A DNA stretch of 64,000 nt from contig NZ_CP126271.1 in assembly GCF_003234655.2 (NCBI RefSeq), positions 248,001 to 312,000 on the forward strand. The letters run 5' to 3'. The DNA comes from Curtobacterium sp. MCLR17_007 (lineage in GTDB: Bacteria; Actinomycetota; Actinomycetes; Actinomycetales; Microbacteriaceae). The position numbers and the translations under genes were made by a program. Positions within the stretch are counted from its first letter, which is position 1. Each line of letters begins with the position of its first letter. Below the pieces are notes generated by a model. That model saw only the letters and a program-made list of their open reading frames with translations. It searched no databases and was not told where the DNA came from. Below, piece by piece: positions 45,231 through 49,591 of this stretch.

Positions 45231-45332
45231 CGTTCGACGGTACGACCAGCTGCGCCGTTGCGCGACGGCTGTTACCGGATCGGGGCCTCGCCGTCACCGG
45301 ACCGTGACCTTCTGCTGGACTGGACAGGTCTT

Positions 45333-45345
45333 GTACATGTACCGT
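45333..45345 (+). promoter_or_regulatory. GntR operator overlapping its own -10
   Basis: GTACATGTAC (45333-45342) is a perfect 10-bp palindrome of the HutC/GntR type. The -10 TACCGT (45340-45345) overlaps its right end and lies seven nt before the GntR start at 45353. This implies autoregulation of the whole operon. Confidence 0.75.
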
Positions 45346-45352
45346 TGCCGTC

Positions 45353-46099
45353 ATGCCCGTCTCATCGAAGCGACGCCTCGTCGCCGACGCCCTCCGCGAC
45401 GCCATCGCGACGGGCCGCTACGTCCCCGGGGAGCGCCTGCCCGGCGAACACGACCTGGCCCAGCGCTACTCCGTCAGCCGGGGGACCGTCCGCGCCGCGT
45501 TGGCCGAACTCGCCGACGACGAGTACATCGCGACCCGCGGCGGCCTGGGGTCGGTCGTGACCTTCGACGGTGCCGCGCTCGACCCCCGAGCCGGTTGGGC
45601 GCGGTCCATCGCCGGCAGCGGCACCCCCGTGCACGCCACCACGCTCCGGATCGAACGGATCCAGGACGCGGAGCTCGCGAGCCTCGTCGGCGCCGACCCC
45701 GCGTTCGTCGCGGTCGATCGCGTGCGGTCGATCGACGGCGGCCCGCACGTCTCGTTCGAACGGAGCATCGTCCCGCGCATCGGCCGACTCGACCAGGCGG
45801 TCGAGGACGGACTGGTCGACGGGTCCCTCAGCGCGACCATCGAGGCAGCAGGGCTCGTGCCCGCCCGCGCCGAACAGTGGATCGACGTCCGGCCGCTCGA
45901 CGAGGACGAGGCCGTCGTGCTCGGTCGTGCCGCCGGCACCCCGTTCCTGCACAGTCGTCGGGTGGCGCGGACGGCAGACGGGGCCTTCGTCGAGGCCGTC
46001 GACAGCCTGCTCGACCCGGAGCGGTTCCGGATCCACATGCGCTTCGGCCAGGGCGACCCGCGACCCAGCACGCGTCCGGACCAGGGGGACCCGCGATGA
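45353..46099 (+). CDS. GntR/UTRA (HutC subfamily) transcriptional regulator, YegW-like
   Basis: 248 residues. Winged helix (VADALRDAIATGRYVPGERLPGEHDLAQRYSVSRGTVRAALAELADDEYIATRGGLGSVV) then a UTRA effector domain with TTLRIERIQDAELASLVG, DRVRSIDGGPHVSFERSIVP and SRRVARTADGAFVEAVDSLLDPERFRIHMRF. The C-terminus has a short GQGDPR...DQGDPR echo. First gene of the nucleoside-type operon. It overlaps the next gene's ATG by 4 bp, and the operator sits over its -10. Confidence 0.9.
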   Translation: MPVSSKRRLVADALRDAIATGRYVPGERLPGEHDLAQRYSVSRGTVRAALAELADDEYIATRGGLGSVVTFDGAALDPRAGWARSIAGSGTPVHATTLRIERIQDAELASLVGADPAFVAVDRVRSIDGGPHVSFERSIVPRIGRLDQAVEDGLVDGSLSATIEAAGLVPARAEQWIDVRPLDEDEAVVLGRAAGTPFLHSRRVARTADGAFVEAVDSLLDPERFRIHMRFGQGDPRPSTRPDQGDPR

Positions 46100-47094
46100 G
46101 CCGCACCACCGACCATGCCCTGGCCGCGTTCCAGGGGCTCGCGATCGGCGACGCCCTCGGCATGCCGACCCAGTCGATGTCCCGCGACGAGATCCGGCTC
46201 GACCACGGCGGCATCACGGGGTTCGTCGACGCCGGCCCACACCAGCGCATCGCGCACGGCATGCCCGCCGCGAGCATCACCGACGACACCGAGCAGGCCG
46301 TGCTGGTCGCACGCCTGCTGGTCGAGGGCGACGGACGGATCGACCCCACCCGCTTCGCCCAGGCGCTCATCGACTGGGAGCGCGGCATGGCGGCGAAGGG
46401 GTCGCTCGACCTGCTGGGTCCGAGCACCAAGACCGCCGTGCAGCGCATCCTCGACGGCGTCCCCGCCTCCGAGGCCGGGTCGACCGGCACGACGAACGGC
46501 GCGGCGATGCGCATCACCCCCGTCGGCATCGCGACGCCCGCCGACGACCTCGAGGCGCTGGTCGACGCGGTGCAGGACGCCTCGCGCGTCACGCACGACA
46601 CCGGGATCGGCATCGGTGGGGCCGCCGCGATCGCCGCAGCCGTCAGTGCCGGGATCGACGGGGCCTCCCGGCACGAGGCGCTCGACGTCGCGGTGGCCGC
46701 AGCGGCCGTCGGCGAGCGACGCGGGCACTGGATCGCCGGCGCGTCGGTCGCCGCGAAGACCGCCTGGGCGCGCACCTGGCTGCCGACCGTGCCCGCGGCC
46801 GAGCGGGTCCGGGCGATCGACGGCGTGATCGGCACGAGCGTCGCGAGCCAGGAATCAGTGGTCACCGCCCTGGCCCTCGTCGCGCTCGACCTCGACCCGT
46901 GGGACACGCTGTGCACCGCGGCGAGCGCCGGCGGCGACACCGACACGATCGCGGCGATGGCCGGGGCGGTGCTCGGTGCCGTCCACGGGACCGACGCCTG
47001 GCCGGCCGGATCGGCTGCCCGCGTCGAGTCCGTCAACGACCTCCGGTTCACCGAGGTCGTGACACCCCTGGTCATCCTGCGACTCCGCAGGTAG
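46096..47094 (+). CDS. ADP-ribosylglycohydrolase-family protein, YegU-like
   Basis: 332 residues of the DraG/ARH fold: GLAIGDALGMPTQSM at the N-terminus, the metal motif SITDDTEQAVL, HDTGIGIGGAAAIAAAVSAG, and the second metal site ASAGGDTDTIAAMAGAVLGA. The family hydrolyses N- or O-glycosidic bonds of ADP-ribose. Here, between a permease and a sugar kinase, cleavage of a nucleoside or similar riboside is more likely than protein de-ADP-ribosylation. E. coli yegU has the same setting. Confidence 0.9.
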   Translation: MSRTTDHALAAFQGLAIGDALGMPTQSMSRDEIRLDHGGITGFVDAGPHQRIAHGMPAASITDDTEQAVLVARLLVEGDGRIDPTRFAQALIDWERGMAAKGSLDLLGPSTKTAVQRILDGVPASEAGSTGTTNGAAMRITPVGIATPADDLEALVDAVQDASRVTHDTGIGIGGAAAIAAAVSAGIDGASRHEALDVAVAAAAVGERRGHWIAGASVAAKTAWARTWLPTVPAAERVRAIDGVIGTSVASQESVVTALALVALDLDPWDTLCTAASAGGDTDTIAAMAGAVLGAVHGTDAWPAGSAARVESVNDLRFTEVVTPLVILRLRR

Positions 47095-47171
47095 GCCCGA
47101 GCGGTGGCATCCCCCACGAGTCACCGCTCGGGCCCAGCACGACGAACCCTTCCGACGACGTAAGAGGAACC

Positions 47172-48659
47172 ATGTCCCACCAACCGACCGCCGGCACCCT
47201 GACCAGCGTCGAACAGCGCGGCATCGAACCCGTGCCCACCGCCGAACGGACCGGCAGTTCCGGAGCGCTGTTCTGGGTCTGGTTCGCGGCGAACATCTCG
47301 ATCCTCGGGCTGCCGCTCGGCGCCACCCTCGTGGCCTTCCAGCACCTCAACGTCTGGCAGGCGCTGCTGGTCGCCGTGATCGGTGCTGCCGGCTCGTTCG
47401 CGCTCGTCGGGGTGATCTCGATCGCGGGTCGTCGCGGCGGTGCACCCGGACTCACCCTGAGCCGCGCGGTGTTCGGCGTCCGGGGCAACATCGGCCCGAC
47501 GTTCGTCTCGCTGCTGTCGCGGCTCGGCTGGGAGACGGTGAACACCACGACCGCCGCGTTCGTCCTGCTCTCGCTCTTCACGATCCTGTTCGGCACGGAC
47601 GGCGACGCGAAGCACACCCCACTGCTGACGGTCGTCGCCATCCTGGTGTTCGTCGTCGCGACGGTGCTGATCTCCGGCCTCGGTCACGCCTTCATCGTCG
47701 CCGTGCAGAAGTGGGCGACCTGGGTGTTCGGCGCGCTCAACGTGTTCGTGGCCGTGTTCCTGGTCCTGCGCGTCGACTGGGACGTGGTCGGGAGCGCGCC
47801 GGCCGGCCCGTTCGCCGCGATGGCAATCGGGATCGGCACCATCGCCGCCGGCACCGGGATCGGCTGGGCGACCGCGGGCGCGGACATCGCGCGCTACACG
47901 AAGACGAGCGTCCGGGCCTCGAAGCTGGTCGCTGCGAGCGCCGCCGGCGCGGGCATCCCGCTCGTGCTGCTGGTCGGCCTCGGCGCCCTGGTGTCGGCCG
48001 GTGACCCGACGCTGGCCCGGGCCGGGGACCCGGTCGCCGCGATCCGCGACCTGCTGCCGGGGTGGATGGCGATCCCGTACCTGATCGCCGCGTTCGGCGG
48101 CCTGCTGCTCTCGAACCACCTGTCGGTCTACTCGGCGAGCCTGACGACGCTGACCCTCGGCATCAAGGTCCCCCGCGTGTGGGCGGTGACGGTGGACGTC
48201 GTCGTGACCTTCCTCGGCGCCATGTACTTCATGCTCGTGGCCGACGGCTTCTACGCGCCGTTCATCACCTTCATCTCGGTGCTGGCCGTCCCGATCACCG
48301 CATGGCTCGGGGTGTTCATCGCCGACATCACCCGGCGCACCTGGTACGACCCGACCGCGCTGCTCGACCTGCGGGCCGGCGGCCGCTACTGGTACTCCGG
48401 CGGCATCGCGTGGCGCGCCGTCATCGCCTGGGCCGTCGCGATCGTCGTCGGGTTCCTGTTCACGAGCGTGCAGGTCGGTGACGCCGACCCGGTGTTCGTC
48501 GGCGCGTTCTCGAGCACGTGGATCGGCGCGAACGGACTCGGGTGGGTCGTCACCTTCGTCGTCGCTGCCGCCGTCTACCTGCTGAGCGGGGGTCCGAAGG
48601 GCCTGCTGCACGAGCAGGCCGACGAGTCCGCGCCGCTGACGTTCGCCGGTCGCCGCTGA
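47172..48659 (+). CDS. NCS1-family nucleobase/nucleoside permease
   Basis: A 495-residue, 12-helix cytosine/purine permease type: SGALFWVWFAANISILGLPLGA, RAVFGVRGNIGPTFVSLLSRLGWETVN, and GIGWATAGADIARYTKTSVRASK are family signatures. It imports nucleobases, nucleosides or hydantoins with Na+ or H+. AGAGGAAC precedes the ATG, 77 bp after the hydrolase gene. The kinase gene's ATG overlaps its stop. E. coli's yeg cluster uses an MFS nucleoside carrier (YegT) instead. Confidence 0.9.
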   Translation: MSHQPTAGTLTSVEQRGIEPVPTAERTGSSGALFWVWFAANISILGLPLGATLVAFQHLNVWQALLVAVIGAAGSFALVGVISIAGRRGGAPGLTLSRAVFGVRGNIGPTFVSLLSRLGWETVNTTTAAFVLLSLFTILFGTDGDAKHTPLLTVVAILVFVVATVLISGLGHAFIVAVQKWATWVFGALNVFVAVFLVLRVDWDVVGSAPAGPFAAMAIGIGTIAAGTGIGWATAGADIARYTKTSVRASKLVAASAAGAGIPLVLLVGLGALVSAGDPTLARAGDPVAAIRDLLPGWMAIPYLIAAFGGLLLSNHLSVYSASLTTLTLGIKVPRVWAVTVDVVVTFLGAMYFMLVADGFYAPFITFISVLAVPITAWLGVFIADITRRTWYDPTALLDLRAGGRYWYSGGIAWRAVIAWAVAIVVGFLFTSVQVGDADPVFVGAFSSTWIGANGLGWVVTFVVAAAVYLLSGGPKGLLHEQADESAPLTFAGRR

Positions 48660-49591
48660 TGCCCCGGCTGGTCTCCGTCGGCAACGTCATCGTCGACCTG
48701 GTGATGCGGGTGGGTGCGCTCCCCGAGCCCGGCGGCGACGTGATCGCCTCGTCGTCGGACATCACGGCGGGCGGTGGCCTGAACACGATGGTCGCCGCCC
48801 GGCGCGACGGGATGGAGGTCGTCTTCGGCGGCCAGTTCGGCACCGGACCCTTCGGCGACGTCGTCCGTCGCGCACTCGTCGACGCCGACGTGCAGGTCGT
48901 GCAGCCCGGCATCGACGACGTGGACAGCGGGTACTGCGTCGCGCTCGTCGACGCATCGACCGAGCGCACCTTCGTCACGTCCGTCGGCGCGGAGGGGCGG
49001 CTCGGACCGGCTGACCTGGCCCGCATCGCGCTGCGGGACGACGACACGCTGTTCGTCTCCGGCTACGGCCTCGCGCACGCCGAGAACGGCGCCGCCATCG
49101 CCGACTGGTTGCCGACGGTGCCGGCGTCGGTGCGCGTGGTGCTGGACCCGTCACCGCTCGTCGACACGCTCGACCCGGCGGTACTCGGCCCCGTCAGGGC
49201 ACGTGCGGACGTGCTGTCCACGAACGCCCGGGAGGCCCGGCTCCTGTCCCCGACGTCGGCCGACCTGCGGCAGGCGGTCACCGCCATGGCCGCCGGGGCG
49301 CGCGGCGCCGTGCTGGTCCGTGACGGCGGGGCCGGGTGCTGGGTGGCCGACCGGTCGCTGCCGGACGGTCCGGTCCTGGTGCCGGGCTTCCCGGTCGCGG
49401 CGGTCGACACGAACGGCGCCGGCGACGCACACGGCGGCGTCCTGGTCGCCGCGTTGACCCGCGGTGAGCCGGTCCTCGACGCGGTCCGGCGTGCGAACGC
49501 GGCCGCGGCGATCGCGGTGTCCCGCCTCGGCCCGGCGACGGCACCCACGCGGGCCGAGACCGATGCCTTCCTCGCCGCACACCCGGCCTGA
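48659..49591 (+). CDS. PfkB-family carbohydrate/nucleoside kinase, YegV-like
   Basis: 310 residues of the ribokinase fold: SVGNVIVDLVMRVGALPEPGGDVIASSSDITAGGGLNTMVAARR (signature 1, with the GG hinge), and VAAVDTNGAGDAHGGVLVAAL (signature 2; the catalytic Asp in GAGDA). It phosphorylates a sugar or nucleoside with ATP. ATG overlaps the permease stop by 1 bp. Last gene of the operon. Confidence 0.92.
   Translation: MPRLVSVGNVIVDLVMRVGALPEPGGDVIASSSDITAGGGLNTMVAARRDGMEVVFGGQFGTGPFGDVVRRALVDADVQVVQPGIDDVDSGYCVALVDASTERTFVTSVGAEGRLGPADLARIALRDDDTLFVSGYGLAHAENGAAIADWLPTVPASVRVVLDPSPLVDTLDPAVLGPVRARADVLSTNAREARLLSPTSADLRQAVTAMAAGARGAVLVRDGGAGCWVADRSLPDGPVLVPGFPVAAVDTNGAGDAHGGVLVAALTRGEPVLDAVRRANAAAAIAVSRLGPATAPTRAETDAFLAAHPA

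What the first reader, a model, noticed from the sequence alone, without database searches (positions are those of the whole stretch)
45333..49591. Four-gene GntR/ARH/NCS1/PfkB operon parallels E. coli yegWUTV with a swapped transporter
Seen: GntR/UTRA regulator, ADP-ribosylglycohydrolase-fold enzyme, NCS1 permease and PfkB kinase, with start-stop overlaps at two of three junctions and a GTACATGTAC operator on the -10. Known: E. coli yegT (MFS nucleoside carrier), yegU (ARH family), yegV (PfkB) and yegW (GntR) form the same functional set. Inference: import of a nucleoside or riboside, glycosidic cleavage by an ARH-fold enzyme and phosphorylation of the released sugar or of the nucleoside. An ARH enzyme used in small-molecule salvage would be a little-described pathway.
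Basis: partly seen in the sequence, partly recalled or inferred. Interest (0 to 1): 0.75.

Follow-up and report, generated by a model that had tools for sequence, protein, structure and literature searches.

The report
Riboside-splitting operon with ADP-ribosylhydrolase fold
Bacteria from several phyla keep four genes side by side (a switch protein, an importer, a sugar-type kinase and an enzyme with the fold that removes ADP-ribose from proteins), and this set is predicted to take in and split ribose-linked small molecules, which would also give a likely job to the unexplained E. coli genes yegTUV.

Summary
In detail: GntR/UTRA, ARH-fold enzyme, NCS1 permease and PfkB kinase lie head to tail at 45353-49591. 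The grouping is not chance: among the 80 best related loci 77 keep PfkB, 76 NCS1 and 78 GntR beside ARH; the link fades in distant ARHs (PfkB in 2 of 11). Two corrections. NCS1 is the common importer, shared with YegU-type modules; E. coli YegT is the exception. The operator is a tandem pair of TGNACANGT boxes, not one palindrome; boxes follow the first gene of the operon and are missing where GntR is missing. ARH and kinase are sister clades of YegU and YegV. The ARH keeps the metal site, lacks DraG's adenine motif, and has Gln for the flap Glu plus DraG's Asp (115 of 131 rows); YegU types have the reverse, Glu plus Asn. The kinase shares motifs with YegV and is outside the ribokinase clade. 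Importers and helper enzymes vary around a constant ARH-kinase core. Best reading: a riboside with a heterocyclic base is imported, phosphorylated, then split. Substrate, step order and catalysis are untested; a nicotinamide-type riboside is a candidate.

The parts
45321..45329 (+). operator box 1, TGGACAGGT
   Evidence: position; box pattern upstream of GntR in 76 of 88 loci examined
45332..45340 (+). operator box 2, TGTACATGT, 11 bases after box 1; overlaps the palindrome GTACATGTAC 45333-45342
45353..46099 (+). GntR/UTRA (HutC-type) regulator, 248 aa
46096..47094 (+). ARH-fold enzyme, 332 aa, window-type branch (Q26, D105)
46171..46173 (+). codon of Gln26, at the place of DraG Glu28 (Glu flap)
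   Evidence: alignments; column counts
46408..46410 (+). codon of Asp105, at the place of DraG Asp97
   Evidence: alignments; column counts
46594..46596 (+). codon of His167, invariant in 131 of 131 rows
47094..47134 (+). strong hairpin between ARH and NCS1, no U run behind it
   Evidence: -38.6 kcal/mol for 47092-47171, z -6.06
47172..48659 (+). NCS1-family permease, 495 aa, clade NCS1-A
48659..49591 (+). PfkB-family kinase, 310 aa, in the clade that also holds YegV

Best explanation
The four genes at 45353-49591 are a conserved gene cassette that is predicted to bring a riboside (ribose joined to a small heterocyclic base) into the cell, put a phosphate on it and then split it into the base and ribose 5-phosphate, probably under repression by its own GntR protein. 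Shown: gene order, conservation, shared ancestry of the enzymes with YegU and YegV, co-occurrence of GntR with the tandem boxes, kept metal ligands and lost adenine motif. Inferred: NCS1 imports the riboside; PfkB acts on the riboside and not on free ribose; ARH uses its two-metal site to hold the ribose 2,3-diol, with Asp105 in the role that Glu has in other members; GntR binds the two boxes and lets go when substrate or product is present. By analogy with ARH1 and ARH3, which cleave only alpha-linked ADP-ribose, an alpha-riboside is the likelier stereochemistry. The base differs between lineages, which is why importers and helper enzymes change while the ARH-kinase core stays.
For: Conservation: PfkB 77, NCS1 76, GntR 78 of 80 loci; 29, 22 and 11 of 29 Microbacteriaceae loci, with the ARH itself found in only 35 of 199 family genomes sampled. 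The set, or ARH-kinase with another importer, is on plasmids of alpha-, beta- and gammaproteobacteria and lactobacilli. Core: ARH and PfkB trees split alike into window type and YegU/YegV type; kinase motifs [SHT]GY in 35 of 35 module and YegV kinases against 0 of 20 others, ER[ST]F in 34 of 35 against 0 of 20. ARH: metal ligands D63, D64 131 of 131, D281, D283 130 of 131; His167 131 of 131; DraG adenine-binding Glu121 is Ser in the window and R 84, S 22, K 7 of 131 rows (DraG roles from PMC7050489 section 22). Reciprocal pair: Q26+D105 in 115, E26+N105 in 6 of 131 (112 and 6 of 128 distinct rows). Kinase: outside the ribokinase clade that holds a paralog of the same genome (L174); Lys43 of RbsK replaced by Gly, while Asp13, Asn42 and Asp256 are invariant in 22 rows as in the pseudouridine kinase pocket (passages of PMC9247573). 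Varying importers: NCS1-A, NCS1-B, MFS, Bmp nucleoside-type ABC, Pot-type ABC, nucleoside H+ symporter YegT. Isochorismatase-family gene in 24 of 24 NCS1-B loci. Regulation: boxes in 76 of 88 upstream regions, 0.08 expected each; 5 of 5 NCS1-first loci with GntR have boxes before NCS1, 0 of 11 without GntR (Fisher p 2.3e-4).
Against: No activity, ligand or expression data. Distant ARHs lose the context: PfkB beside only 2 of 11. The Bmp-ABC locus L147 has no PfkB in the 15 kb held; Enterococcus L191 has a beta-glucoside PTS and no PfkB, which fits an ARH acting on a phosphorylated glycoside but points to a hexoside. No importer was identified in L117, L118, L138, L140, L142. NCS1-B also occurs alone in the own genome, so this importer family need not carry ribosides. 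The E. coli paper reports ADP-glucose as effector of YegW and a glycogen phenotype (PMC10819704). The alpha preference is carried over from animal ARHs. Box pattern was chosen after looking at the sequences; many rows are close relatives (Pseudomonas, Curtobacterium).
Confidence: 0.5

Rival explanations
1. Same pathway, other order: ARH splits the riboside first and the PfkB protein phosphorylates the freed ribose, like a nucleoside hydrolase plus ribokinase.
For: Best curated model for the kinase is ribokinase (121 bits, cut-off 300) and best solved relatives are ribokinases.
Against: The kinase is outside the RbsK clade although the genome has a member of that clade (L174, 250 bits to the ribokinase model, cut-off 300); RbsK Lys43 is missing.
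Confidence: 0.22
2. ADP-glucose or glycogen related function, as proposed for E. coli yegTUV.
For: PMC10819704 (abstract, introduction, section 3.6, discussion seen): ADP-glucose weakens YegW binding to DNA, and a ggaR deletion raises glycogen.
Against: The paper states that the functions of yegT, yegU and yegV are unknown. ARH enzymes need the cis 2,3-diol of a ribose (PMC7050489 section 22). I saw no glycogen gene in the annotated loci read.
Confidence: 0.07
3. The ARH reverses ADP-ribosylation of a protein, nucleic acid or ADP-ribosylated metabolite.
Against: Far below the DraG (82 of 337 bits) and Tri1 (54 of 490) cut-offs; DraG adenine motif absent; constant company of an importer and a kinase. 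I did not search the genome for ADP-ribosyltransferases.
Confidence: 0.1
4. The four genes are neighbours with separate jobs in transport and sugar metabolism, kept together by joint transfer.
For: The cassette is sporadic (35 of 199) and found on plasmids.
Against: Gene overlaps, congruent ARH and kinase trees, boxes that follow the first gene.
Confidence: 0.06

Closest known systems
E. coli yegTUV with yegW (ggaR)
   Same: ARH plus PfkB core from sister clades; GntR regulator nearby; nucleoside-type importer (Nuc_H_symport)
   Different: importer family; YegU has Glu26 and Asn105; yegW is convergent to the operon and only 29 bits from the window GntR; no TGNACANGT box found upstream of yegT; function unknown in print
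PsuK-PsuG-PsuT pseudouridine catabolism (E. coli)
   Same: importer, PfkB-family nucleoside kinase, then glycosidase giving base and ribose 5-phosphate (passages of PMC9247573)
   Different: glycosidase PsuG is of another family (recalled); kinase only 32 bits
DraG (ADP-ribosyl-dinitrogenase-reductase hydrolase) and ARH1/ARH3
   Same: fold and metal ligands; Asp105 matches DraG Asp97
   Different: Glu flap is Gln; DraG ExxA adenine motif absent; below curated DraG cut-off
Yeast nicotinamide riboside uptake and splitting (Nrt1, Urh1, Pnp1)
   Same: a riboside is imported and its base released (passages of PMC7072712); that Nrt1 is an NCS1 protein is recalled
   Different: Urh1 and Pnp1 are not ARH-fold enzymes (recalled)

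Membership tests
ARH family (PF03747) | Pfam model over cut-off and ARH fold | tested here: met
ARH family (PF03747) | two-metal ligand set (TDDT and DxDT motifs) | tested here: met
   D63 and D64 131 of 131, D281 and D283 130 of 131 rows
ARH family (PF03747) | Glu flap glutamate (DraG Glu28, ARH3 Glu41) | tested here: not met
   Gln26 in window; Q 116, E 13 of 131 rows; PMC7050489 says the Glu has only a minor effect in DraG
DraG proper (TIGR02662) | curated equivalog cut-off | tested here: not met
   82 bits, cut-off 337
DraG proper (TIGR02662) | Asp97 | tested here: met
   Asp105 aligned to it
DraG proper (TIGR02662) | ExxA adenine-binding motif (Glu121) | tested here: not met
   Ser129 in window
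DraG proper (TIGR02662) | Tyr212 under the adenine | tested here: inconclusive
   that stretch is not aligned
yegTUVW module | ARH and PfkB of the YegU/YegV lineage | tested here: inconclusive
   sister clades, not inside them: kinase clade of 34 rows 98/94; YegV group 4 rows 100/99; 30 window-type kinases 98/76; ARH
yegTUVW module | nucleoside H+ symporter as importer | tested here: not met
   importer is NCS1
ribokinase RbsK (TIGR02152) | curated cut-off and place in RbsK clade | tested here: not met
   121 bits, cut-off 300; outside the clade
NCS1 permeases | PF02133 over cut-off | tested here: met
   178 bits, cut-off 23.5; the narrower TIGR00800 is not reached (77 of 353)
nicotinamide riboside salvage | NAD-salvage genes beside the cassette | tested here: inconclusive
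   one L. plantarum plasmid has NrtR-like, PncB and nicotinamidase-like genes upstream; none in the window; a second L. plantarum plasmid lacks them
riboside glycosidase or kinase activity | turnover of a riboside | not testable with these tools
   needs purified protein

The most novel reading that the evidence does not exclude
An ARH-fold branch has left protein ADP-ribosylation and become the glycosidase of a widespread riboside salvage route: a core of ARH plus YegV-like kinase, with plug-in importers and base-processing enzymes, splits phosphorylated alpha-ribosides (nicotinamide-type ribosides are the leading candidate), and the catalytic carboxylate has changed places between two sister branches (Gln26+Asp105 against Glu26+Asn105), E. 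coli YegTUV included.
Probability: 0.3. Interest if true: 0.85.

Novelty: new variant of a known kind. Interest (0 to 1): 0.6.

Why it matters
yegTUV is an unassigned operon of the best-studied bacterium, and the paper read on it leaves the three functions open. If the reading is right, a fold known for removing ADP-ribose from macromolecules has a second life in small-molecule salvage; 6,367 related proteins at E 1e-15 or better were scored in one capped search (only 7,999 candidates were scored). The constant core with changing importers and helpers gives a direct way to find substrates, and the Gln/Asp against Glu/Asn pair gives a simple test of how this fold does catalysis. The tandem box gives a reporter for finding the inducer.

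Tried and rejected
Single palindrome as operator: dropped, because tandem TGNACANGT boxes explain more loci. A multi-gene regulon of the GntR: no support, the 7 other copies of the 10-mer are inside predicted ORFs. Nicotinamidase as name for the NCS1-B-linked isochorismatase gene: not accepted; nearest solved protein is 1ilw (44 bits), but its D-W-H stretch has no counterpart (that this is the zinc site is recalled) and all NCBIfam matches are below cut-off. NrtR at the head of three Microbacteriaceae loci (L124, L127, L144, one genus) as proof of an NAD link: not accepted; for L127 the nearest solved relative is an arabinose-type AraR regulator (130 bits; 3gz5 98 bits), and the NCBIfam NrtR model is missed (105-115 of 400). 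Thiamin link from E. coli thiD and thiM and weak CytX scores (41 of 310): not pursued. Conserved extra genes round the Pseudomonas cassettes: none seen in the small set compared (18 loci). Kinase structure: not obtained.

The 131 ARH rows hold 128 distinct sequences. In one search three PfkB misses (L013, L018, L023) are contig ends. In the box test before NCS1, L134 had no upstream sequence and was left out. L019 has ARH and NCS1 in broken frames and was counted as it stands.

Literature searches: (all 10 allowed). No paper in those listings described an ARH-PfkB-NCS1 set; the library lacks most subscription papers. Papers: PMC10819704 abstract, introduction, section 3.6, discussion and passages; PMC7050489 section 22 and passages; PMC9738213, PMC6309922, PMC9247573, PMC7072712, PMC9503650 and PMC11633122 passages; PMC13390362 outline and abstract; the others search listing only. 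The NrtR paper 10.1093/nar/gkn047 is not held.
Full report
Observation. GntR and ARH overlap by 4 bases (ATGA 46096-46099), NCS1 and PfkB by 1 base; between ARH and NCS1 lie 77 bases with a strong hairpin. All four pass the Pfam cut-offs. On the equivalog level none of the four is named: HutC/PhnF-type regulators are 56-60 bits with cut-offs of 157-220, DraG 82 of 337, NCS1 subfamily 77 of 353, ribokinase 121 of 300.

More than chance. A scan of genome contigs with the ARH protein gave 80 loci, from Curtobacterium and other Microbacteriaceae, Kineosporia, Lentzea, Amycolatopsis, Pseudonocardia, Nocardia, Kibdelosporangium and Pseudomonas (the best 80 of 535 confirmed relatives, and the pattern list had reached its limit). 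On the same strand and close by, 77 have PfkB, 76 NCS1, 78 GntR; the order GntR-ARH-NCS1-PfkB is found in 68, GntR-ARH-PfkB-NCS1 in 7 (all Amycolatopsis); of the misses L013, L018, L023 end at contig ends, L032 and L069 have ARH-PfkB only. In the own family the ARH is sporadic, 35 of 199 genomes at E 1e-10; 29 of the loci read at wider range all have PfkB, 22 NCS1 and 11 a related GntR. In 11 such genomes PfkB genes number 5-14 and NCS1 genes 1-5 per genome, so these neighbours are not expected by chance. The link fades with distance: among 11 loci from a phylum-wide sample (31 of 396 genomes with a hit at E 1e-20), PfkB is beside ARH in 2, NCS1 in 1 (and in 1 on the other strand).

Other phyla and other importers. 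Plasmid records show the same four genes in Paraburkholderia, ARH-PfkB plus an SBP_bac_8 (Pot-type) ABC importer in Paracoccus, Mesorhizobium and Rhizobium, YegT-type symporter in Pantoea and Salmonella, and ARH-NCS1-PfkB in Lactiplantibacillus and Plesiomonas. In Microbacteriaceae L122 and L123 an MFS gene is upstream; L117 and L118 have a LacI gene downstream in place of GntR, with no importer identified; none was identified in L138, L140, L142 either. L147 has a GntR-ARH gene followed by a Bmp (PnrA-like) ABC importer, without PfkB. Enterococcus L191 has a beta-glucoside PTS directly before ARH and no PfkB.

Ancestry. In the PfkB tree 30 window-type kinases and 4 YegV-type kinases form one starred clade (98/94), apart from the RbsK clade (7 rows, 100/98), which holds E. 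coli RbsK and a paralog of the own genome (L174); L152 falls outside on a long branch; the root is a midpoint. The motif [SHT]GY is in 35 of 35 module and YegV kinases and 0 of 20 others, ER[ST]F in 34 of 35 and 0 of 20, GAGDxH-type in 30 of 35 and 0 of 20. The ARH tree separates window-type and YegU-type in the same way. In the NCS1 tree the window permease is in a clade of 14 (100/100) whose sister holds the NCS1 of the L. plantarum and Plesiomonas YegU-type modules (98/99); the NCS1-B proteins are a separate group. I infer that NCS1-ARH-kinase is the older arrangement and YegT the later one; rooting is not shown.

Active site. The AF2 model is confident (pLDDT 94.3, pTM 0.94) and nearest to MJ1187, ARH3 and DraG. 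In 131 aligned rows the metal ligands and His167 are kept. Position 26, DraG Glu28 and the Glu flap of ARH3, is Gln in 116 rows. Position 105, DraG Asp97, is Asp in 116. The pair Q26+D105 is seen in 115 rows; E26+N105 in the 6 YegU-type rows (E. coli, Pantoea, Vibrio, Salmonella, L. plantarum, L147); the remaining 10 are E with a gap (6), E+Q, Q+E, A+P and one broken row. L190 and L192 add two more E+N; L191 has E with Phe. MJ1187 and DraG keep both acids (alignments). DraG Glu121, which reads the adenine (PMC7050489 section 22), is Ser129 here and Arg or Lys in 91 of 131 rows. So the part of the pocket that holds the ribose is kept and DraG's adenosine reader is not. ARH1 and ARH3 cleave only alpha-linked substrates and also alpha-NAD+, releasing nicotinamide (passages of PMC9738213).

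Kinase. RbsK Lys43 is Gly here and Asn14 is Ile (their role in ribose binding is recalled). Asp13, Gly38-40, Asn42 and Asp256 are invariant in 22 rows. In pseudouridine kinase Asp16, Asn45 and Asp256 hold the ribose of the nucleoside, and the plant enzyme has Ile at the Asn14 position (passages of PMC9247573). This favours a riboside as acceptor, hence phosphorylation before splitting. The Enterococcus PTS locus without a kinase fits an ARH that takes a phosphorylated substrate, but the PTS is annotated for beta-glucosides.

Regulation. Upstream of GntR, the box [GA]NACANGT (either strand) is present in 76 of 88 loci, mean 1.70 hits against 0.08 in shuffles; it was defined after reading the sequences, and palindromic boxes count twice. 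Window, Kineosporia and Amycolatopsis share GTACATGTAC itself. In the NCS1-GntR-ARH-PfkB loci the boxes are before NCS1, in 5 of 5 with sequence; in 11 NCS1-first loci without GntR there is none (Fisher p 2.3e-4; the loci are related, so this is a guide only). Of the 12 GntR loci without a box, 5 are of that kind (one cut off), and L022, L065, L076, L080, L081, L156, L157 are not explained. No such box is upstream of yegT.

Helper genes. All 17 NCS1-B Microbacteriaceae loci and all 7 Amycolatopsis loci carry one isochorismatase-family gene beside NCS1 (PF00857 checked in 4 of these 24); none was found with NCS1-A in the flanks held. One L. plantarum plasmid has an NrtR-like regulator, PncB (683 bits, cut-off 469) and a nicotinamidase-like gene (189 bits to the solved nicotinamidase 3o90), then 306 bases, then ARH-NCS1-PfkB; another lacks them. 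I read this as: the aglycone often carries an amide or similar bond, and a nicotinamide-type riboside is one candidate. Against a simple reading, NCS1-B stands alone elsewhere in the own genome.

Mechanism and verdict. Most likely the cassette imports a riboside, phosphorylates it and splits it, with GntR as local repressor. Shown: layout, conservation, ancestry, residue patterns, box and GntR co-occurrence. Inferred: substrate class, order, catalysis, repression. Rivals are the reverse order, the ADP-glucose idea from the YegW paper (PMC10819704, where ADP-glucose weakened binding in gel shift), and de-ADP-ribosylation. No paper found in my ten searches assigns a function to the enzymes.

Noticed in passing
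window 47094-47134: A long GC-rich hairpin without a U run sits between ARH and NCS1 (-38.6 kcal/mol for 47092-47171, z -6.06). By eye, 6 of 10 other Curtobacterium-group gaps folded show a similar hairpin with different letters, and a stretch like CTTCCGACGACGTAAGAGG recurs before NCS1; perhaps RNA processing or attenuation.
   Followed up: partly
L019 5266-9928: In Curtobacterium flaccumfaciens Sample7_18 ARH and NCS1 are read in several broken frames; sequencing errors or decay.
   Followed up: no
L013: A 3.3-kb contig labelled as a Mycobacterium MAG carries the cassette at 76% ARH identity, and its upstream region is the same as in Curtobacterium aurantiacum L015; probably a misbinned contig.
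   Followed up: no
L190 2881-9253: A L. plantarum plasmid joins NAD-salvage genes (NrtR-like, PncB, nicotinamidase-like) to a YegU-type ARH-NCS1-PfkB set.
   Followed up: partly
L191 4069-6978: Enterococcus raffinosus megaplasmid: beta-glucoside PTS directly before an ARH gene, no PfkB.
   Followed up: no
L124 9749-10570, L127 10206-10910, L144 9813-10553: NrtR/AraR-type Nudix regulators head GntR-less NCS1-B cassettes in one genus.
   Followed up: partly
L192 5796-5976: The Plesiomonas GntR-ARH intergenic region has repeated AACTGGACT units, perhaps another tandem operator type.
   Followed up: no
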